Below are positions 54,428-64,000 of a DNA stretch of 64,000 bases, in pieces. The translations under genes were made by a program, and so were the position numbers. The notes below the pieces were generated by a model. That model saw only the letters and a program-made list of their open reading frames with translations. It did not search any database and was not told the DNA's origin. Origin of the DNA: Herbaspirillum sp. RTI4 (GTDB taxonomy: Bacteria; Pseudomonadota; Gammaproteobacteria; Burkholderiales; Burkholderiaceae_D); contig NZ_JAVIWQ010000002.1 of NCBI RefSeq assembly GCF_034313965.1, forward strand, positions 1,798,001 to 1,862,000, read 5' to 3'. The stretch's first letter is position 1. Each line of letters opens with the position of its first letter.

Positions 54428-55024
54428 TCACGATGACGCTGATGATTTAATTTCGCTCAGGTTTGGATTCTCATAAGAAAACACAAAATTTGAAAATGCA
54501 GAAATCGCCATTTTTTGCGCAAATATCCGTTGAAATGCCGTTTCTGAATAAGAAATAAGAGCTTCCGTTTTTTTTAGTTCCGCCATATCGCCAAGTGGCT
54601 GCGTGATATTTTCAGCGAGTAATTTTTCGCGGCGTGTTTGTAAATTCAGGATCACCATTTGAAGTGCATCCGAACGCTGCCGAAGGTTGGAAAAGACCGG
54701 AGTACCGTCCGCGCCTTTGAAGTCGTTCAGTTTGTTGAGAACGCGACGGCTGGAGTCAACCGAATCTGTTAACAAGGAATCAACGAAGGCAGCAATATTT
54801 TGTATGGTGCTATTCGTTGTAGGTAAGCGGGATCGAGTTGCTGATGCCGTAGAGGACGGTATAGACGTCGTGGTTCGGATATTGGATGCTCTTGTTTCAA
54901 CCGGAAGTTCAATTCTGGATAATGCCGCAGCATTCTGCACACGAGAATGTAATGTCACGACAGCGTCTGCTGCCGTGGTGGTGGCGTATGGGGAGGAGTG
55001 CAATACCTGTTTAATAGAACTCAT
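54428..55024 (-). CDS. Unrecognised protein in the orgC position of the T3SS operon
   Basis: The 198-residue product is not recognised. The first 80 residues are Ser/Thr/Ala-rich and probably unstructured, like a secretion signal region. Residues 85-180 look helical (IQNIAAFVDSLLTDSVDSSR, LRQRSDALQMVILNLQTRRE, LKKTEALISYSETAFQRIFA). It lies 108 bases after the orgB-like gene and ends the operon, where Salmonella has orgC, a secreted helper of needle assembly. Homology to OrgC is not shown by the sequence alone. Confidence 0.6.
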   Translation of the reverse strand: MSSIKQVLHSSPYATTTAADAVVTLHSRVQNAAALSRIELPVETRASNIRTTTSIPSSTASATRSRLPTTNSTIQNIAAFVDSLLTDSVDSSRRVLNKLNDFKGADGTPVFSNLRQRSDALQMVILNLQTRREKLLAENITQPLGDMAELKKTEALISYSETAFQRIFAQKMAISAFSNFVFSYENPNLSEIKSSASS

Positions 55025-55132
55025 TTCAATTCTCTATAAAGGTTCCTGATTACGTTACAGAACGGTGAGAACTCTCAGGCCTGCCGTTTCGATATTGACT
55101 TTAAGCCGGCAGCGGCTGTTACTCAAAGGTTC

Positions 55133-55936
55133 TCATATATTTTTTGGGAAATAGACTTCGCTGAGGTCGGACGAGTGTCCTGACTGATCAGAAAATTCAT
55201 CCTCAGCCTCACTCATTGCAGCCTGATCAGCATTGTTTTTGTCAGTAGTAGGATATTCATGGGGGGTGCTGGAGCGGTCAAGATGGCGCAGAAACATATC
55301 TACTGATTGCCGAGATAACTCTTCCACTGAGCCACGCAAATTAAGTTGCTTGAATGCTCCCACTACTTCTGGATACATCTCACCCATAAATTTTTCGGTA
55401 TCGAATTCATGGACAAATTCTCCATATTCAATGGTAATTCTTGGCTCATCTGTAATCACCACGGAAGGCATAAAACCCATCCAGTGTTGTATGCATTCGA
55501 TAAAATCATCACGTCGTTTTATCAGTGCGGTAGGAAGAAAAACAGTCATTTTTTTTTCTTCCAAGCAAGGCTGCTCCGATGCCCACTTGCTGAGTAATAA
55601 ATTGATAAATTCAGATTGGCCAAGCAAATTAGTCAGTTCGTGTTGAATTATGTGCAGCAAGCGCTTTTGAATATCATGATGCAATTTTTCCGCATTGTTT
55701 AAACGGGCCAGAAAATCACCAAGACATTGCAAGAGAGTATTTGAATAGGCATCAACATAAGCTTGTCGTTGAATTTCTGAGGCTGATTTTTCAGCAATTG
55801 CCACAATTTTTTTAGCGCGAGCTTGTGCGTATCGTAAGAGTCGATATGCATATTGACCCTCTTGAAGCGCACTGCGCGGTATCAGTACCCCTTCAATCCT
55901 TGGAGCTGGATACGCTAATTGAATAAGTTTTGGCAT
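55133..55936 (-). CDS. sctL: T3SS stator protein SctL (OrgB-like)
   Basis: SctL/OrgB links the export ATPase to the sorting platform, like FliH. The 267-residue product begins with APRIEGVLIPRSALQEGQYA, then the long helix YRLLRYAQARAKKIVAIAEK and SASEIQRQAYVDAYSNTLLQ. The C-terminal domain includes RRDDFIECIQHWMGFMPSVV. An acidic Ser/Glu/Asp-rich tail follows residue 220. It overlaps the orgA-like gene by 44 bases, as is common in this operon type. Confidence 0.82.
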   Translation of the reverse strand: MPKLIQLAYPAPRIEGVLIPRSALQEGQYAYRLLRYAQARAKKIVAIAEKSASEIQRQAYVDAYSNTLLQCLGDFLARLNNAEKLHHDIQKRLLHIIQHELTNLLGQSEFINLLLSKWASEQPCLEEKKMTVFLPTALIKRRDDFIECIQHWMGFMPSVVITDEPRITIEYGEFVHEFDTEKFMGEMYPEVVGAFKQLNLRGSVEELSRQSVDMFLRHLDRSSTPHEYPTTDKNNADQAAMSEAEDEFSDQSGHSSDLSEVYFPKNI

Positions 55937-56477
55937 GAGAAATTGCGAAGGTAATCAGAGACTTGTCAGGTTGAGGAATATGTATTGGCGTGGAGCCGTA
56001 ATCTGGAGGGGCATCAAGGACTAGCGCTAACCGAGATCCAAAAGATTTTGGTACGAAATCGCGTAACTGGAGCAGGTAGTGGCACCCTGTCTGAAATAGA
56101 AAGTCAGCATCAATCGAGTCGTTTGAAATGGCAATTCGCTTACTCGGGAAGGGTAAACATAAAAATCGGCGAGTGTGTTTATTCAGGGAGCAATAAAATC
56201 CTTGCCTGACAATATTGTCCCGATATAACCAGCAACCAATTAGATGAGCTGCTTCAGGCAAGTAATACCAGCCATCAACTAATAGTCGGGCGTAGGGAGT
56301 GTCTAGAAAGCCGATATCTCCCATTTCTGGCAGAGAATGACGGCTTATTAAAAAGCGATTCACTGCACTTCGGCGCCGCAACTCTCGTAAGTCCTCAGCT
56401 GGCACAGCATGGAAAGAGGGATATGACAATATGTCATAAAAGATGCATCGTAACGTATCAGAGTGCACGGTCGACAA
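55893..56477 (-). CDS. sctK: T3SS sorting platform protein SctK (OrgA-like)
   Basis: OrgA/SctK is a cytosolic part of the sorting platform. The 194-residue product has SDTLRCIFYDILSYPSFHAV, then PEAAHLIGCWLYRDNIVRQG, a pattern typical of OrgA/MxiK. It overlaps the end of the prgK-like gene by 20 bases and the sctL gene by 44. Gene order is the strongest evidence; sequence conservation in this family is low. Confidence 0.8.
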   Translation of the reverse strand: MSTVHSDTLRCIFYDILSYPSFHAVPAEDLRELRRRSAVNRFLISRHSLPEMGDIGFLDTPYARLLVDGWYYLPEAAHLIGCWLYRDNIVRQGFYCSLNKHTRRFLCLPFPSKRIAISNDSIDADFLFQTGCHYLLQLRDFVPKSFGSRLALVLDAPPDYGSTPIHIPQPDKSLITFAISHAKTYSISVSSSKD

Positions 56478-57231
56478 CGCTTAGCGCGCGCTCATTGGGT
56501 GCCGAAGGAAATGAAGACAGGGACTTATTCCGTGAACGAAAAAAAACAAACAGCAGAAATCCGATGGAGATGCTGAACAAAATGAATACGCCAAAAGCGA
56601 TAAAAACTTGACTGTCGCGCCAACCGGATTTGGCACTTACATTAGTCGTGTGTTGCAAGACGGCTCGCCTTGTAGGAACAATTGAAATATTGTCGTAATC
56701 GATTTGAGTAAATGAGTTTTTTAAGAAGCGTTTGCTCGTATTGATTAATTGCTGTTCATCAAGGTCTTTATTGTAGGTAATCAAGGCTGAAACATGAATC
56801 GGCCCCGACTTTTTGCCACCATCACCATCAATGTCATAACTAACATGGACGCGAGCCGAACTAACGCCGTCCATGGTTGCCAGCGATTGTTCAAGGCGTT
56901 GCTCGATCGCCGAGTAAAGCCGGGCTTTTTCTCCGCGCGGAGATGTTACTAAGGTGTCCTTGGGAAACATATCCGCGATTTGAGTGCGAGGAGGTGACGG
57001 TAATTCGTTGATTTTCAGCAAATCGACTGCAGTCGCCATGTCCTCTCCATTTACTTTGACTGAGTATCCCTTCTTACCGTTATTTTTTTTATCAGCACTA
57101 ATATTGCTGCGTTGTAGTGCAGCCAAAACTTCATTAGCTTGCCGCTGATCAAGTCCTTCCAGCAATTCTTTATCACAACCAGTCAAAATAATTGCGAAGA
57201 GGGCTATCGATAGCGAGGAATAAATACGCAT
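56458..57231 (-). CDS. sctJ: T3SS inner-ring lipoprotein SctJ (PrgK-like)
   Basis: SctJ forms the inner MS-like ring of the needle complex. The 257-residue product has a lipoprotein signal with lipobox LTGC (Cys19) and KELLEGLDQRQANEVLAALQ, the classical SctJ opening. SAIEQRLEQSLATMDGVSSA and RVHVSYD follow. One transmembrane helix lies at about 208-231. The stop of the sctI gene lies 2 bases upstream of its start. Confidence 0.93.
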   Translation of the reverse strand: MRIYSSLSIALFAIILTGCDKELLEGLDQRQANEVLAALQRSNISADKKNNGKKGYSVKVNGEDMATAVDLLKINELPSPPRTQIADMFPKDTLVTSPRGEKARLYSAIEQRLEQSLATMDGVSSARVHVSYDIDGDGGKKSGPIHVSALITYNKDLDEQQLINTSKRFLKNSFTQIDYDNISIVPTRRAVLQHTTNVSAKSGWRDSQVFIAFGVFILFSISIGFLLFVFFRSRNKSLSSFPSAPNERALSVVDRAL

Positions 57232-57233
57232 GG

Positions 57234-57524
57234 TTAGGACTTGACGACAGTTTCAACCAAGGCAACGGCCTTGTGAGTCAGAGAGGAGATTAGTGCCACA
57301 TGATTTGAATAACTTTCAACACGCACTTGCAGATTAGCAAGCGTTTTCGGATTGAATAAATCAGTCTGTGATGTATGAAGAATCGCGTTTTTAGTTACAG
57401 CTGAATCAACTGCTATATCAGCGATAGCAGCGGCTGCACGTGATTCAAGTGATATCGGTTCCGATCTTTGCAGGGTAGTTGTTGCACTAAATGAAATATC
57501 AGGACGAAGAGAGGTGATTTGCAT
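57234..57524 (-). CDS. sctI: T3SS inner rod protein SctI (PrgJ-like)
   Basis: SctI forms the inner rod at the needle base. The 96-residue product has a disordered N-terminus and a helical C-terminus (FNPKTLANLQVRVESYSNHV, ALISSLTHKAVALVETVVKS). The pattern P-xx-L-xx-LQ...Y...V...S.L..K is typical of PrgJ/MxiI. It sits between needle and SctJ genes. Confidence 0.87.
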   Translation of the reverse strand: MQITSLRPDISFSATTTLQRSEPISLESRAAAAIADIAVDSAVTKNAILHTSQTDLFNPKTLANLQVRVESYSNHVALISSLTHKAVALVETVVKS

Positions 57525-57589
57525 GAGAAATAAAAATAATTTGTGGTGCTAATGACTATGTTTGTGGGTTGATATAGTCAAATTAGATA

Positions 57590-57856
57590 TTAAATTTTCC
57601 GAATAATTTCGGCATCAACATCGCCAATTTTTTTTACTAAACTAGATTGCAGGCCGGCCACTGTTCCAAAGGTAGTGGTTGCTGTTTGAAGCTCTGACAA
57701 TAATTTTGGATTCGTAGCATCACCTTCAACCGCTTTAATAGCGAGACTCATATTGGCCATTGCTTTCGTAACACTCGCGTCCATACTACGAGCTAATGTG
57801 GAGATATAATCATTTGTGCCGAGTCCACTTGTGCTTGATGTAATTGCTTCGCTCAT
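57590..57856 (-). CDS. sctF: T3SS needle protein SctF (PrgI-like)
   Basis: Needle subunit. From ATG 57856 (AAAGAA upstream) the product is 88 residues, close to PrgI (80). It has DYISTLARSMDASVTKAMAN, a central NPKLLSELQTATTTFGTVAG and C-terminal LQSSLVKKIGDVDAEIIRKI, where the NP-turn between two helices is the needle-protein signature. A TTG start at 57871 would add 5 residues. Confidence 0.9.
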   Translation of the reverse strand: MSEAITSSTSGLGTNDYISTLARSMDASVTKAMANMSLAIKAVEGDATNPKLLSELQTATTTFGTVAGLQSSLVKKIGDVDAEIIRKI

Positions 57857-57952
57857 TTGATATTCTTTCAAATATTCATACAGTTAAAAATATTAAAAAC
57901 ACATATTATTACAATTAATAATACTTTATTGGCATATTAATGATTTATTTTT

Positions 57953-59170
57953 TTAATTAATTAATTTCGGTATTTTTGAAAAATCCCAATGATTTTTGTT
58001 CATAACAATGTAGCTGTCGGATCCATATTTAAATGAATTATTTTTAATAAAATCATCTTTTAATAATATATTTATATTTATAAATTGAGAGCCAAATTTA
58101 GAGTAAAAATCTTTTATGAATTGATAAACTTCTATGAGCATTACATCATCAATTGGCCCAGTATTTGTAAGGCTAACTCCAGAAGAGCTATCACGATAAT
58201 GATAATCTAGTCCAATTTTATCAAGTCCATCTTTTGCAGCTTTAATCACATCGGAATCTTCAATTAAGACAATGTTAATTTTATTTGCATAAGGCGTTAT
58301 TTCTAGTATTTGTTTTTTTAATGAATTAATAAATTCAGTTGTTATAACATTTCTATTTGAGCTTATTAAAATTTCTGGTTCTTTAATATTGTTGAGATGG
58401 ATAACAAAGAATGCGACATTTATATTTTTTAATAATTCGCTAATACGGTCTGATTCAAAATTACGTGAAGTTATTATAACTTTTCTACTGACGTTAGTTT
58501 TAATAACGGCCTGTCTGGCCCACTCTAGATCACCTTCACTATTAGCAATAATGTAATGAATATTATCTCGACCAGTTTCAATTTCATAAGAAATGGAAGC
58601 ATCTTTAAATAATTTATTTAAAGATGTAACCTCATTATCTTGATATAAAAAAAGTAAGGCGTAAATGGCAATTAATGCGGATATTAAACATATTATTGAA
58701 ATAAAAAAAAGTCGATAACCACGGCTTGCAATATTAAATTTATTTTTTATATTGGTGATTTCTTCAGTCAATTCTATTTTTTGTGGTGAAATAAAATTTT
58801 CAATTGCTTCCTCCCAAGCTGTCCCAGCTAACTTAACGGAAAAATAAATATTTTCAATTGCAATAACTTCATTAAATGAAAATTTAATAGTTTTAGTGTT
58901 ATTTTTATTGTGAACTAAAGCGGTAATTTGATCTTTTATTTTTTTTTTATCCGCCACAAAAATCGTAAAATTTACACCATCGGTTTCGGTTGGCAAATAA
59001 ATTACTCGTTCATCTAATTTAAGTGTATCAGCTACGTTATTTATATCTAAAAATCTTTCTGGTTTTGCACAAAATAAATACTCACCAGGACCAATTGAAA
59101 ATTCAAAACCATTTAATGGCCCAGAAAGTAGTCTCATAACATATTCATTACCGCAGTCATACTTTTTCAT
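57953..59170 (-). CDS. sctD: T3SS inner-membrane ring protein SctD (PrgH-like)
   Basis: SctD/PrgH forms the outer part of the inner-membrane ring. The 405-residue product has an FHA-like cytoplasmic domain (YVMRLLSGPLNGFEFSIGPG), one transmembrane helix at about 153-176 and a periplasmic domain of repeated ring-building motifs. Length matches PrgH (392). It is first in the prgHIJK-orgAB order. The coding DNA is strikingly A+T-rich (many AAT, ATT, TTA codons), unlike the flagellar genes. Confidence 0.87.
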   Translation of the reverse strand: MKKYDCGNEYVMRLLSGPLNGFEFSIGPGEYLFCAKPERFLDINNVADTLKLDERVIYLPTETDGVNFTIFVADKKKIKDQITALVHNKNNTKTIKFSFNEVIAIENIYFSVKLAGTAWEEAIENFISPQKIELTEEITNIKNKFNIASRGYRLFFISIICLISALIAIYALLFLYQDNEVTSLNKLFKDASISYEIETGRDNIHYIIANSEGDLEWARQAVIKTNVSRKVIITSRNFESDRISELLKNINVAFFVIHLNNIKEPEILISSNRNVITTEFINSLKKQILEITPYANKINIVLIEDSDVIKAAKDGLDKIGLDYHYRDSSSGVSLTNTGPIDDVMLIEVYQFIKDFYSKFGSQFININILLKDDFIKNNSFKYGSDSYIVMNKNHWDFSKIPKLIN

Positions 59171-59295
59171 TTGAAACTCATATTTATTTATCTATGCTAA
59201 AAGTTGACTAATATTATAAAATATGTTTTTTAATAAAATTAAATATTTACTGTAAATAAAAATTTTTACAGTATTATTTCATTGAAAATAAAAAA

Positions 59296-59964
59296 TTAAT
59301 TAGAGCTGGTCGAAAATGCTAATAATCCTGTTTCCATTGCATATTTATATAAATCTGCATCACGTTGAATGCCTAATTTTTTCATTGCGCTTGCCTTTTG
59401 CGAGCTAACAGTTTGTTTACTTCGCAATAAACTAGCCGCAATTTCATTAACAGTTAGCCCAGATACAAACAGTCTAATTACTTCAACTTCACGCTTTGTT
59501 AATTGAGGCTCACGGCTTTTTCCGTCGGAATCAAGATTTAATAATTTTGATATTTGATTCGCAGCGGGCGAGAGATATTCTTTTCCCAAAAACGCAGCAA
59601 ATACCGCGCATATTACATGGCTCGGATCGTCAGATTTACTCAATACACACTTAATATTTAGCTTTAATATTGATCTCAATACACTAGGATTGTCGATCAT
59701 TGTCATGATGACAGTTTTAAGCTTGGGATAGCGGCGACGTATAAACGTCAGTAACGCGACACCATCCCCATAAATACCCCCTGGCATTGCGTAGTCAGAT
59801 AATAAAACATCACATTGACGAGTCTCAAGAAGCTTAGTTAACTCAGTAGAATTTGAGGCTGTGCCTACTATGTCAATTTCTTGAGCTTCGGCAAGAAGAT
59901 GACTGATACCAAGAATCACCGTCGGGTGATCATCAGCAATTATTACCCGTATCATTTTTTGCAT
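59296..59964 (-). CDS. RcsB/NarL-type LuxR-HTH response regulator
   Basis: The 222-residue product has a receiver domain with the acidic pocket DDH and phospho-acceptor Asp57 (LLSDYAMPGGIYGDG), followed by KTVIMTMIDNPSVLRSILKL and a KSD (SKSDDPSH) loop. The C-terminal LuxR-type HTH (about 155-210) is LTKREVEVIRLFVSGLTVNE, then RSKQTVSSQKASAMKKLGIQ. The YAMPGG and SKQTVSSQK motifs are RcsB/BvgA-like. Its place beside T3SS genes suggests control of the island. No cognate kinase is in the window. Confidence 0.9.
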   Translation of the reverse strand: MQKMIRVIIADDHPTVILGISHLLAEAQEIDIVGTASNSTELTKLLETRQCDVLLSDYAMPGGIYGDGVALLTFIRRRYPKLKTVIMTMIDNPSVLRSILKLNIKCVLSKSDDPSHVICAVFAAFLGKEYLSPAANQISKLLNLDSDGKSREPQLTKREVEVIRLFVSGLTVNEIAASLLRSKQTVSSQKASAMKKLGIQRDADLYKYAMETGLLAFSTSSN

Positions 59965-60577
59965 ATATATTTTGATGCCGAATTAGTCGTTATTTGTTTG
60001 ATAAAAAAGAAATTAAAAGATCACATATCCGGATTTTTTATTTCGATTTCTTTTTCAAATTTTTCAATCATCAATCGTTTTTGAGCAGGAGATAAAAATA
60101 TATATTTATTTAAATAACCAATAAATTTCTTGATTTCCCGATCAGGTAAATATGCCAGTGTTATCAATACAATTTCAGCTTTTTCTGAATTTTTTTTTCC
60201 AATATTAGTAGTCATTATTTCGAAGGCGATTAGCGTAAAATTTACACCTCTCGTTTTTAATGTTATCGAATGTAATTACTATAAATAAAATAGTCCCGGT
60301 AGAACATCGTACGAGTATGAAATATAAATTAATTAAATAAATTATCCGGGAGTAATTTTTAAAAGAATATTTTGCGCGAAATTGCTTAAGTGCCATATTT
60401 AGTACTGGTCCTATGGACACCAAAAACATCATCACATATTGTTTGCCTGGATTCTATTTTATAAAAATATATATTTAAAAATAATTTTTATATCTTAAGG
60501 AAATCTCAATAGAACATCAATTTTTATCGTAATTTTGCGATTAATTTGATGTTAAGTCGGAGCGAACCAATCGACCT
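59965..60577. other. A+T-rich divergent regulatory region of the T3SS island
   Basis: The two T3SS halves diverge from this 613-base region. It is very A+T-rich, so many chance -10-like sequences occur and no single promoter can be chosen. It holds one weak small ORF (60021-60215). It probably contains promoters for the response regulator and the AraC gene. Confidence 0.5.
60021..60215 (-). CDS. Possible small charged protein upstream of the response regulator
   Basis: A 64-codon frame with ATG at 60215, rich in Lys, Glu and Ile (EIKKFIGYLNKYIFLSPAQK) and with helical character. It lies 56 bases upstream of the response regulator on the same strand. No clear RBS and no recognised family. It may be a chance frame in A+T-rich DNA, though its amino-acid make-up looks protein-like. 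Confidence 0.35.
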   Translation of the reverse strand: MTTNIGKKNSEKAEIVLITLAYLPDREIKKFIGYLNKYIFLSPAQKRLMIEKFEKEIEIKNPDM

Positions 60578-61321
60578 ATGAAGACTGCAAATGGAATCAA
60601 TATGGAGCATTGTCCGCACCTGCTTCTTTTAAAACCTGGAATGAAATACTCTAAGTGTGAGGTGCGAATCGGAAGCGAAATACTTCATTTGGAAATATTG
60701 TCATTGGATACGGCTTTATGTTTAATTACTGCAACAAAAATTCACGGACAGTTAAATATTGGTGATGCCAAAATAAAAATTATTTCTTGTAGTCGCTTAA
60801 TAAAATTACTGGCATTTATAGACCATAATAATTTGGCCCCTCAATCTTCATTTGGAATTAAAGAGTCGATTATTCAAGTGAGTATCCACGATGATCGATC
60901 AATTACTCCTTCCGGTTTGGAAAAATGGTTCTTATTGGGCATAATTTCTGGTGACTCGGCAGTCATGAGGGTGGCGCAGATGCTACGGAGATATGAGGAT
61001 TACAGCTTAGTAAAGTTTTTATTGCTCAATCGCGACTGCAGCAGTATCGAAGTTCTAGGTAGCCGTTATGGCCTGTCAATTTCGCATTTTCGACGAAAAT
61101 GCAAACGTGCCTTGGGGACATCTATAAAGCGTGAATTCAGGATATGGCGAGCAGCGGGAGCGTTGCTGGCAACAGCAGGTCACCAGTTTGGGTTGACTAA
61201 TATTGCCTTGGATCATGGTTATGCATCGTCTTCTCACTTCTCAAGAGATATAAGGGATTTATTTGGGTTTTCTCCAACAGAACTTTATATGGAAAAAATT
61301 TTAAAGCGAATTAATAAATGA
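60578..61321 (+). CDS. AraC-family transcriptional regulator of the T3SS (InvF-like position)
   Basis: The 247-residue product has an N-terminal domain of unknown ligand and a C-terminal AraC/XylS double HTH (about 150-245). Key blocks are EVLGSRYGLSISHFRRKCKR, AAGALLATAGHQFGLTNIAL and DHGYASSSHFSRDIRDLFGF, the last being the AraC signature. Its stop overlaps the invG-like start (ATGA), so it is translationally coupled to the secretin, as invF is to invG in Salmonella. An internal ATG at 60602 is another possible start. Confidence 0.88.
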   Translation: MKTANGINMEHCPHLLLLKPGMKYSKCEVRIGSEILHLEILSLDTALCLITATKIHGQLNIGDAKIKIISCSRLIKLLAFIDHNNLAPQSSFGIKESIIQVSIHDDRSITPSGLEKWFLLGIISGDSAVMRVAQMLRRYEDYSLVKFLLLNRDCSSIEVLGSRYGLSISHFRRKCKRALGTSIKREFRIWRAAGALLATAGHQFGLTNIALDHGYASSSHFSRDIRDLFGFSPTELYMEKILKRINK

Positions 61322-63045
61322 AAAAAATAATTATGGTCGCCATACTACTATTCGTGGCGGGAATAAGTAATGGATGGGCGCAGAGTAGTGATGGTGAGAA
61401 CGGGAAAAAAAATACAGAAAATGCAGAGATATTCGCTGGTGGGTTTGTTGCGAGGGGAGAGAGTGTACAGCAATTGTTTCAAGGGTTATCGTCAAAGATA
61501 CACAAGCCAATTATATTAAGTTTGCGTGCACAAAAAAAAATTGTTACAGGTAATTTTGATTTTTCACGCCCTCGAATATTGTTAGAAAAATTGAGTGAGC
61601 AGATTGGCCTTATCTGGTTTGATGATGGTCAGGCAATTTATATTTATGACTCTGCAGAAATGAAAAATGCAGTCATTTCATTAAAAAATTCATCATTACC
61701 AACATTAATTGAATTCTTGAGAAAGTCAAAAATATTAGATTCCCGTTTTCCAATCCGAAGTGATTTTTCAACAAACACTTTTTATTTAGTCGCTCCACCA
61801 ATATATATAGATTTAGTAACGGAAATTTCGGCTCAGATCGATGCCGCACATAACAACACAGAATATGCTGGGGAAATTAAAGAAAAAATTGAAATAATAA
61901 AATTGCATAATACTTTTGTGGATTCCCGGACATTTGAATTGCGAGAGAAGACCATAATAATCCCTGGCATTGGTTCTGTTTTGACTAATATTTTAACGAG
62001 GGATCCTGGTTTGGCGGCCGCCACTAAGGTGACTATGACGACAGATGATGGCGGTCCCTCTGTTCAACGGGAAACGCCATCAGGTGGAATTGTTGTGGGA
62101 AAAGATATACCAGTAATGCAGAAAATAAGTGCGGGCAGCGATGGCGAAAACTCGCAGGTCAAAATTATTGCTTATCCTGAAACTAACAGTCTTTTGATCA
62201 AGGGATCGGATAAGCAGGTTCGATTGATACAAAATCTGGTATCAAAGCTGGATGTTCCTCGCCGACAAATTGAGTTGTCATTATGGATGATTGATATTTC
62301 AAAAAACGATCTGGATCAGCTCGGGGTTAACTGGCAGGCTGGAGTGAGTATCGGTAATGTTGGGAAAATAAATTTTAACAATGATCCGATTCGCGTTACA
62401 TCGCTGGATGGTAATCGGTTCCTGGCGGCGGTAACCGCTTTAAGTCAGAAAGGTAATGCGCAAGTCGTATCACGTCCCATTGTATTAACTCAGGAAAATA
62501 TCCCAGCTATTTTTGACAGTAACCATACCTTCTACAGCAAGCTGGTTGGGGAGAGGAATGCTGTTCTTGAAAAAGTAACATTCGGGACCTTGATTAGTGT
62601 TTTGCCGCGCATATCAGGACAGTCTGGTGATATTGAAATGATTTTGAATATCGAGGATGGTATGCCATCGAAATCCTTAGGTGATACCGGTTTAGTTGAT
62701 GGCTTACCAGTCGTAAGCCGAACCAAGATCAATACCGTGGCTCGTGTACCGCAAAATCTGAGTCTATTGATTGGGGGTTATTCGCGTGATCAGACAAATG
62801 CTGAGGTTTCTAAAATTCCTTTATTGGGTGACATCCCTTTTATTGGTAGTTTTTTTAGATTCAGTAATAAGAATATCCAGAAGCTGACTCGCGTATTTCT
62901 GATCCAACCGCGAGTGATTGATGCTTCGGATGGATGGGACGCCATCCAGTTTGACAGAGAAAATTCTACCGGGCGCGATATTTCCTTGCCGAATACATTG
63001 GAAATCATGAGTAAGCGTTTGGAGGATAACGTTGGCTATCGATAA
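61318..63045 (+). CDS. sctC: T3SS outer-membrane secretin SctC (InvG-like)
   Basis: Forms the outer-membrane ring channel of the needle complex. The 575-residue product has a signal peptide (KKIIMVAILLFVAGISNGWA), N-domains with GNFDFSRPRILLEKLSEQIG, and NSLLIKGSDKQVRLIQNLVS. The secretin core is QIELSLWMIDISKNDLDQLG, GNAQVVSRPIVLTQENIPAI, VARVPQNLSLLIGGYSRDQT and IPLLGDIPFIGSFFRF. Length is close to InvG (562). It overlaps the next gene by 14 bases. Confidence 0.93.
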   Translation: MKKIIMVAILLFVAGISNGWAQSSDGENGKKNTENAEIFAGGFVARGESVQQLFQGLSSKIHKPIILSLRAQKKIVTGNFDFSRPRILLEKLSEQIGLIWFDDGQAIYIYDSAEMKNAVISLKNSSLPTLIEFLRKSKILDSRFPIRSDFSTNTFYLVAPPIYIDLVTEISAQIDAAHNNTEYAGEIKEKIEIIKLHNTFVDSRTFELREKTIIIPGIGSVLTNILTRDPGLAAATKVTMTTDDGGPSVQRETPSGGIVVGKDIPVMQKISAGSDGENSQVKIIAYPETNSLLIKGSDKQVRLIQNLVSKLDVPRRQIELSLWMIDISKNDLDQLGVNWQAGVSIGNVGKINFNNDPIRVTSLDGNRFLAAVTALSQKGNAQVVSRPIVLTQENIPAIFDSNHTFYSKLVGERNAVLEKVTFGTLISVLPRISGQSGDIEMILNIEDGMPSKSLGDTGLVDGLPVVSRTKINTVARVPQNLSLLIGGYSRDQTNAEVSKIPLLGDIPFIGSFFRFSNKNIQKLTRVFLIQPRVIDASDGWDAIQFDRENSTGRDISLPNTLEIMSKRLEDNVGYR

Positions 63046-63532
63046 TTCACTGCGCCTACAATCTGCGCGTTCAATTTTCAGGAATGAGGCAAGGAATAGC
63101 AAGTTGGCCACTCAGGCGGATATCAAGCTTACTTCACTCCCATCGACTACCCATTCAAAGCACATTGCACAACCAGATGTGAATATGCTGGACGACATGT
63201 CGATGTTGATGGCATCAATGAGTCGACGCGTAAATCGAGAGGATAGAAAATTAACTGCGATTAACGACAGGTTTTCAAAATTACTAGAAGAAAATAGTGA
63301 GACCGGTCTGCAAGAGATAGGCGAGATAGTCTTGTTAAGAGAGATTTCCGCTAGGGATTTACTACAATTTTCCATGCAGCGATTCCCTGATATCAGCGAT
63401 CTTATTTTGGCATTGGAACACTTGCTTGAGCAGTATGGGCAAGAAGAGTTAGAGAGGTCGAAAGAACTCGAGCGTCGGAATATCGCCGATGCTCTGGCAT
63501 TGGCACGATTGGATGGAGACAAAAAAAAATAA
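63032..63532 (+). pseudogene. sctW: T3SS gatekeeper SctW (InvE-like), N-terminal part, frame broken at an A9 run
   Basis: InvE/SctW controls the order of translocator and effector secretion. The frame starts at TTG 63032 with GGAGG 7 bases upstream and gives 166 residues before stopping right after a run of nine A (63521-63529). Residues 40-140 (VNMLDDMSMLMASMSRRVNR, FPDISDLILALEHLLEQYGQ) follow the InvE layout as I recall it from Salmonella. The natural family length is about 370, so the stop is premature. One extra A, or slippage back by one base, would join it to the fragment downstream. Confidence 0.82.
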
Positions 63533-63894
63533 ATAGCGGGATCAATGTTGCAGTCAATGCAAAATTATTTAGCGCAAAGCTACATTTAAATCCAAAAGTT
63601 TTACGGCGCTTGTATCGAAACTTCCTTGAAAATAGCGAAGATGCGTTGTTTATCTACCGGCAGTGGATCGAGGAATATGGCTTAGAAAGACGTCATGCAT
63701 TAGTCGACTTTGTTAGTGCTGCACTTGTCAGCGATATTTACTCACTCGATCCTAGTTGCTCCAACATAGAATTTAATTCTCTACTTTTTTGCAATGTTCG
63801 CTTGAGATTAATCCGATCATCGGGTAATCCCCCCATTTTTAAGCTTGGCGGATTCAAGCGGTCACTGCAACACCTGATTTTCATCATAAATTAA
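63530..63894 (+). pseudogene. SctW (InvE-like) continuation in another frame, cut by an insertion sequence
   Basis: After the A run the other frame reads KINSGINVAVNAKLFSAKLH, then VLRRLYRNFLENSEDALFIY, RQWIEEYGLERRHALVDFVS and LDPSCSNIEFNSLL. This agrees with the InvE middle region (GINxALxAKxF, LLRxxYRxFxxS, DWIxxYGxxRRxxVLDF, DxSCSxLEFxxLL). Similarity continues to about RLRLIRSS (near 63820), after which sequence leads into the IS element and stops at 63894. The C-terminal roughly 130-150 residues expected for the family are absent here. Confidence 0.8.
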
Positions 63895-64000
63895 AATCGA
63901 TGAGGTGTGCGATGCCAAGTATTTACGGAGCAATGACCGATGATCGCAAAGCCATCATCTGGCGAATGTGGCAACAAGGATATCCGATGAGCGAAATAGC
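63822..64000 (+). mobile_element. Left end of an IS30-family insertion sequence (partial)
   Basis: InvE similarity stops abruptly near 63820 and a transposase start follows at 63912. The stretch GATTCAAGCGGTCACTGCAA (63850-63869) resembles terminal inverted-repeat sequence of IS30-type elements. The exact boundary and target duplication cannot be fixed because the right end is outside the window. Confidence 0.65.
63912..64000 (+). CDS. IS30-family transposase (partial, N-terminus only)
   Basis: Twenty-nine codons are visible from ATG 63912 (GAGG 6 bases upstream) before the window ends. The text MTDDRKAIIWRMWQQGYPMS then EIA matches the N-terminal HTH of IS30-type transposases (D-x-R-x-x-I-W-x-x-x-x-x-G-x-x-x-x-x-I-A). 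Catalytic DDE residues would lie beyond the window. Confidence 0.72.
   Translation, partial: MPSIYGAMTDDRKAIIWRMWQQGYPMSEI

What the first reader, a model, noticed from the sequence alone, without database searches (positions are those of the whole stretch)
63510..63620. A9 run splits the InvE/SctW gatekeeper gene: pseudogene or transcriptional-slippage switch
The reading frame of an InvE-like gene ends immediately after nine consecutive A residues (63521-63529), and the next 95-100 codons in the frame reached by one extra A continue InvE similarity without a gap. Transcriptional slippage at runs of nine A or U is established for Shigella T3SS genes (mxiE, spa13, spa33). A slippage site in the gatekeeper gene of a SPI-1-type system would make both short and long products. 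Phase variation by replication slippage is a second option; a simple inactivating indel or a read error is a third.
Basis: partly seen in the sequence, partly recalled or inferred. Interest (0 to 1): 0.85.

Follow-up and report, generated by a model that had tools for sequence, protein, structure and literature searches.

The report
Gatekeeper pseudogene broken by transposons
A bacterial injection-machine gene that seemed to hide a reading-frame switch at a run of nine A's is most likely just a dead gene, because mobile DNA just downstream has also cut off its last third and the start of the next essential gene.

Summary
Nine A's lie at 63521-63529, the InvE/SctW frame stops at 63530-63532, and InvE similarity resumes in another frame for 97 codons. 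The proposed switch is not supported.

From 63823 InvE is cut by a 3,654-bp IS block (IS30, IS3-type, IS30) with GGTAATCCCCCCA inverted ends; a second such block lies elsewhere in the genome. Beyond it SctV/InvA resumes only at about residue 129 of 686. Thirteen relatives have 99-134 InvE residues past this breakpoint, including the TyeA-like third domain; here IS DNA follows instead. The SctV start was not found elsewhere except inside two other complete SctV/FlhA genes. A displaced InvE end was not found, but that search is insensitive. From this locus no slippage product could be a complete gatekeeper.

The 13 relatives each have one unbroken InvE frame, and none has A>=8 at this site. A>=9 runs in the island: 6 seen, 3.6 expected under synonymous shuffling (1.6 under codon-order shuffling); the other five, and one T9, lie inside open genes.

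Best reading: an ordinary pseudogene with two lesions, an A-run frame break (real, or an assembly error) and an IS-associated truncation. Interest is low.

The parts
61318..63045 (+). SctC/InvG secretin gene, open, immediately upstream (overlaps the start of invE)
   Evidence: NCBIfam TIGR02516 E 4.8e-140, above cut-off; SPI-1 N0 domain PF21304
63032..63532 (+). invE/sctW 5' piece, 166 codons plus stop, likely TTG start
   Evidence: HrpJ PF07201 6-102/166 and NF011866 14-144/372; ORF
63521..63529 (+). run of nine A; the InvE frame changes here or within a few codons
   Evidence: no A>=8 at the homologous site in 13 of 13 relatives
63533..63822 (+). invE/sctW middle piece in another frame; InvE similarity ends at 63822
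   Evidence: NF011866 163-259/372, E 3.9e-30; 38-48% identity to 13 relatives over 97 aligned residues; PDB InvE and MxiC matches
63823..64000 (.). left end of a 3,654-bp IS block (GGTAATCCCCCCA end, IS30-family copy from about 63847, then an IS3-family element and a second IS30 copy), which runs out of the window to genome position C2:1865476
   Evidence: family names also from annotated plasmid matches

Best explanation
It carries two lesions. (1) A frame change at an A9 run, a mutational hotspot, or an uncorrected homopolymer error of the assembly. (2) A 3,654-bp IS30-IS3-IS30 block at the invE-sctV junction, where the last third of invE and the first ~128 codons of sctV/invA are no longer in place. 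Shown: both lesions in the assembly. Inferred: that the IS event deleted that DNA, that it was recent, and that this secretion system no longer works. The order of the two lesions is unknown.
For: The two InvE pieces cover model positions 14-144 and 159-259 only. IS30 and IS3-type transposases follow directly. The GGTAATCCCCCCA ends occur as inverted pairs 3,654 bp apart at this site and at C2:946833-950486, and the two blocks align at 99% in pieces. SctV similarity begins at position 129/686 right after the block; a relative's SctV start matches the own genome only inside two other SctV/FlhA genes. A 584-aa protein from an 8,065-base contig begins inside the IS30 end and runs into the same SctV, a hint that the junction is no misassembly. 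13 of 13 relatives have one unbroken InvE frame and 99-134 residues beyond the breakpoint. Of 21 other island proteins scanned, 17 match at least 80% of a family model in one stretch, so damage looks confined to invE and sctV.
Against: The surviving pieces look well preserved (97 clean codons, 38-48% identity), as a slippage-maintained gene would. A9 is of the length at which slippage is documented (PMC1088944, passages). The InvE C-terminal third is so variable that its absence elsewhere in the genome is weakly tested: a relative's C-terminal 119 residues gave nothing in the own genome, but the same query found InvE in only 2 of 6 genus genomes known to have it, at E 0.004 and 0.15; the PF09059 search had no positive control either. 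No raw reads or conspecific strains were available. No target-site duplication is seen by eye, so how the block arrived is inferred.
Confidence: 0.9

Rival explanations
1. Programmed transcriptional slippage at A9 yields short and long gatekeeper products, as at Shigella mxiE and spa13.
For: A9 at the frame break, conserved coding on both sides. Slippage on 9A/9T runs and 'pseudo-pseudogenes' are documented (PMC1088944 passages), as is slippage in Shigella spa13, spa33, mxiA and mxiE (PMC5009743 section 23).
Against: The long product would still lack everything past model position ~259 of 372, and the next gene lacks its start. The site is not conserved in 13 of 13 relatives. Six other island runs of A or T>=9 sit in open frames, as does an A9 elsewhere in the InvE of relative L011.
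Confidence: 0.04
2. The A-run frame break is an assembly or read error; the only real lesion is the IS-associated truncation. (A variant inside the best explanation, not exclusive of it.)
For: Homopolymers are a common source of indel error (general knowledge); damage elsewhere in the island was not seen.
Against: Six other A/T>=9 runs in island genes, including an A10, lie in open frames, five of them spanned by the family match, so the assembly is not generally wrong at such runs. No reads are available to decide.
Confidence: 0.25
3. Phase variation by replication slippage switches the gatekeeper on and off.
For: A9 is a mutable tract (general knowledge).
Against: Neither phase would give a complete gatekeeper, because of the IS block; no comparable tract at the site in relatives.
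Confidence: 0.02
4. A split gatekeeper like YopN + TyeA, made as two polypeptides.
For: Yersinia makes YopN and TyeA as two chains and also a frameshifted hybrid (PMC5009743 section 23; start of the abstract of PMC4914553 in a search listing).
Against: The break here falls near the domain 1/2 border (MxiC domain 2 = residues 154-265, PMC2724173 legend), not at the YopN/TyeA border. The TyeA-like part is not in place.
Confidence: 0.01

Closest known systems
IS-inactivated pseudogenes in secretion islands (general knowledge)
   Same: IS block inside the gene, flanking coding sequence missing, most remaining genes still open
   Different: Nothing essential; here the block is a composite of two IS30-family copies around an IS3-family element, seen at two places in the genome
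Transcriptional slippage in Shigella T3SS genes mxiE, spa13, spa33, mxiA (PMC5009743 section 23; PMC6925163 passages)
   Same: A run of about nine identical A/T in a T3SS gene
   Different: Here the rest of the gene is cut off by an IS block, and the site is not conserved in the relatives examined
'Pseudo-pseudogenes' at 9A runs (PMC1088944 passages)
   Same: Frame break at A9 whose other side continues similarity to homologues
   Different: A second, independent lesion removes the gene's 3' third
InvE / MxiC / YopN-TyeA gatekeepers (SctW)
   Same: Both pieces match the family; the second piece also matches solved InvE and MxiC chains
   Different: No complete protein is encoded; the TyeA-like domain is not in place

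Membership tests
SctW gatekeeper (InvE/MxiC/YopN-TyeA) | HrpJ-type domains 1 and 2 | tested here: met
   in two pieces in two frames; PF07201 and NF011866
SctW gatekeeper (InvE/MxiC/YopN-TyeA) | C-terminal TyeA-like domain attached to it | tested here: not met
   IS DNA starts at 63823, model position ~259 of 372. Whether a copy lies elsewhere is weakly tested: none, but one search shows low sensitivity
SctW gatekeeper (InvE/MxiC/YopN-TyeA) | a single open frame, or a YopN/TyeA two-gene split | tested here: not met
   frame break near the domain 1/2 border and IS truncation; 13 of 13 relatives unbroken
Programmed transcriptional slippage site | homopolymer of about 9 A/T | tested here: met
   A9
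Programmed transcriptional slippage site | run conserved at the homologous place in relatives | tested here: not met
   A>=8 in 0 of 13 over 14 aligned residues; longest is A7 in L014; L005 has an A8 about 17 residues further on, in frame
Programmed transcriptional slippage site | a complete functional product reached in the other frame | tested here: not met
   InvE truncated at ~259/372
Programmed transcriptional slippage site | mixed run lengths in cDNA | not testable with these tools
   no RNA data
IS-inactivated pseudogene | transposase genes and inverted ends at the point where similarity stops | tested here: met
IS-inactivated pseudogene | target-site duplication (not required if flanking DNA was deleted) | tested here: inconclusive
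   none seen by eye at the block's two flanks

The most novel reading that the evidence does not exclude
The A9 frame break came first and was tolerated because slippage kept making some full-length gatekeeper, with the IS event ending this only recently. Conspecific strains without the IS block would then show a conserved slippage-decoded gatekeeper, the first outside the YopN-TyeA type known to me (recalled; the listing showed none by title, and one search was uninformative).
Probability: 0.04. Interest if true: 0.5.

Novelty: already known. Interest (0 to 1): 0.1.

Why it matters
It shows that a suggestive slippery run must be judged with its surroundings: 300 bases further on, mobile DNA has replaced the rest of the gene and the start of the next one. 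If a slippage-decoded gatekeeper existed in an intact sister strain it would matter for how secretion hierarchy is tuned, but this locus gives no support for it.

Tried and rejected
Slippage switch, phase variation and a YopN/TyeA-like split: rejected because the 3' third is not in place and the site is not conserved. Displaced remainder of invE elsewhere in the genome: none found with the family model, the TyeA family (best E 0.24, below cut-off) or a relative's C-terminal 119 residues. Displaced SctV start: the query hits only two other SctV/FlhA genes, in long open frames. A conspecific copy: one search returned only the window's own 166-aa protein (a full-length InvE would lie outside that search's length limits); one search gave one distant locus (Iodobacter, 48%); (viral contigs) none. 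Naming the organism through its small contig and the IS block in the plasmid collection: no record covered most of either query. The first shuffle test used a wrong end for spaN and breaks up lysine pairs; one search replaced it, and both results are given. Genome G300 has only a fragment of a secretin match (L039) and was left out of the InvE comparison. Fetched L061 was not used.

Papers: one search's term 'InvE' also matched words such as 'investigate', so its count of 349 means nothing; its ten listed titles show no gatekeeper paper. One search (MxiC + transcriptional slippage) listed three papers; I read passages of one (PMC6925163). One search found none.

Full report
Observation. The run of nine A's is at 63521-63529, followed at once by TAA at 63530-63532. 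The 166-codon piece before it (63032-63529) is InvE/SctW-like: Pfam HrpJ positions 6-102, E 2.5e-7; NF011866 positions 14-144 of 372, E 5.3e-9. The piece after it, read in its own frame, is more strongly InvE-like: HrpJ 119-166, NF011866 163-259, E 3.9e-30. It also matches solved InvE and MxiC chains. The pieces were examined apart throughout.

What lies next. InvE similarity stops at 63822. At 63823 begins GGTAATCCCCCCA, the end of a block that leaves the window. In the genome (window = C2:1798001-1862000 of a 3.99-Mb, three-contig genome) the block runs to C2:1865476. It holds an IS30-family transposase copy, an IS3-type element on the other strand and a second IS30-family copy (family names as annotated in plasmid matches). 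The 13-base end occurs eight times in the genome. Two inverted pairs are 3,654 bp apart, here and at C2:946833-950486, and the two blocks match at 99% in pieces, with one IS30 copy inverted. The 1.2-kb IS30 core has seven copies. Right after the block SctV/InvA resumes at about position 129 of 686, so the export-gate protein lacks its N-terminal part. A relative's first 128 SctV residues match the own genome only inside two other long SctV/FlhA frames. A protein from another, 8,065-base contig starts inside the IS30 end and runs into the same SctV, which suggests the junction is not a misassembly.

Is the end of InvE elsewhere? The family model finds only the two pieces at E 0.01, no TyeA domain passes its cut-off, and a relative's last 119 InvE residues find nothing at E 1. 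This absence is weak evidence: in the genus the same 119-residue query found InvE in only 2 of 6 genomes known to carry it, at E 0.004 and 0.15. The argument rests on position, not on absence: the DNA that follows invE here is the IS block.

Relatives. Of 294 family genomes searched with the 5' piece, 11 matched, the own genome included. A genus search with the secretin (34 genomes) added G298 and G299, and one named contig, Iodobacter sp. BJB302, was found. This gave 13 InvE genes: L005-L014, L026, L027, L015. All 13 have one unbroken frame (371-438 codons from stop to stop) and 99-134 residues beyond the window's breakpoint. Over the 14 aligned residues around the A run none has A>=8; L014 has A7. 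Five of the 13 have an A>=8 run elsewhere in InvE, one of them A9 (L011) and one (L005, A8) about 17 residues past the site, each within an open frame. Identity of the first piece to these relatives is 21-25%, of the second 38-48%. G300, with only a fragment of a secretin match, was not included.

Is the run itself special? In 27 coding pieces of the island (25.4 kb), A>=9 occurs 6 times against 3.62 under synonymous-codon shuffling (91 of 1000 shuffles reach 6). A>=8 occurs 17 times against 9.93 (2 of 1000), and A>=7 32 times against 19.91 (0 of 1000); T>=8 4 against 1.04 (4 of 1000); T>=9 1 against 0.13 (130 of 1000). A cruder shuffle of codon order gives 1.57 for A>=9 (p 0.004, with a wrong end for spaN). 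So the island as a whole is rich in A runs, and one of six A>=9 runs falling at a frame break is not singular. The other six A/T>=9 runs (five A, one T) lie in open frames; five are spanned by the family match of their protein, and the sixth is at the very start of sicA. The 27 pieces were picked as open frames, so their lack of stops proves little. Better evidence is that, of 21 other island proteins scanned against NCBIfam, 17 match at least 80% of a model in one stretch. The exceptions are InvG (two stretches), SpaM (63%), the SipD-like protein (47%) and the ORF at 54428 (no T3SS match). spaN, spaQ and the 1,105-codon ORF were not scanned. Damage therefore looks confined to invE and sctV, as expected of a recent event.

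Mechanism. The best-supported account is loss of function by an IS-associated deletion across the invE-sctV junction, together with an indel at a mutable A run (or an uncorrected homopolymer error there). Which came first cannot be told. Slippage by RNA polymerase at A9 may occur; slippage on such runs is documented (PMC1088944, passages), and so is its use in Shigella spa13, spa33, mxiA and mxiE (PMC5009743 section 23). In Shigella spa33 the authors found no role for the slippage product in secretion (PMC6925163, passages). Here no slippage could give a complete gatekeeper. MxiC has three domains, with domain 2 at residues 154-265 and domain 3 equivalent to TyeA (PMC2724173, passages). The second piece aligns to InvE chain residues 164-258 and to residues 97-193 of a 294-residue MxiC chain, which I take to be about 158-254 of the 355-residue protein. 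So the A run lies near the domain 1/2 border and the IS breakpoint near the end of domain 2, with domain 3 wholly beyond it (inference).

Verdict. Ordinary pseudogene. What cannot be settled here is whether the A-run break is real in the organism and whether sister strains carry an intact island.

Noticed in passing
L002:11823-15476 (from window 63823 on) and L057 (C2:946833-950486): A 3,654-bp block with GGTAATCCCCCCA inverted ends, IS30-IS3-IS30 inside, occurs twice in the genome with one IS30 copy inverted between them. The ends look like those of another IS (perhaps IS66-like, from memory) into which the IS30 copies inserted.
   Followed up: partly
window 54428-63045 and L002/L003 island genes: The island's genes carry more A7 and A8 runs than synonymous shuffling gives (A>=7: 32 against 19.9; A>=8: 17 against 9.9), so runs are not avoided.
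   Followed up: partly
L059 and L060 (C2:462000-492000): A second type III secretion locus of higher GC (58-59%) with secretin, SctV and SctD-like genes; ORFs in L060 look by eye like SctR, SctU and an ATPase (not scanned).
   Followed up: partly
L003:9543-12860: A 1,105-codon open frame of unknown function directly after the SipD-like gene.
   Followed up: no
L003:14239-15618: An ORF on the minus strand that looks by eye like an IS transposase, between the end of the island and the threonine-synthase-like gene (not scanned).
   Followed up: no
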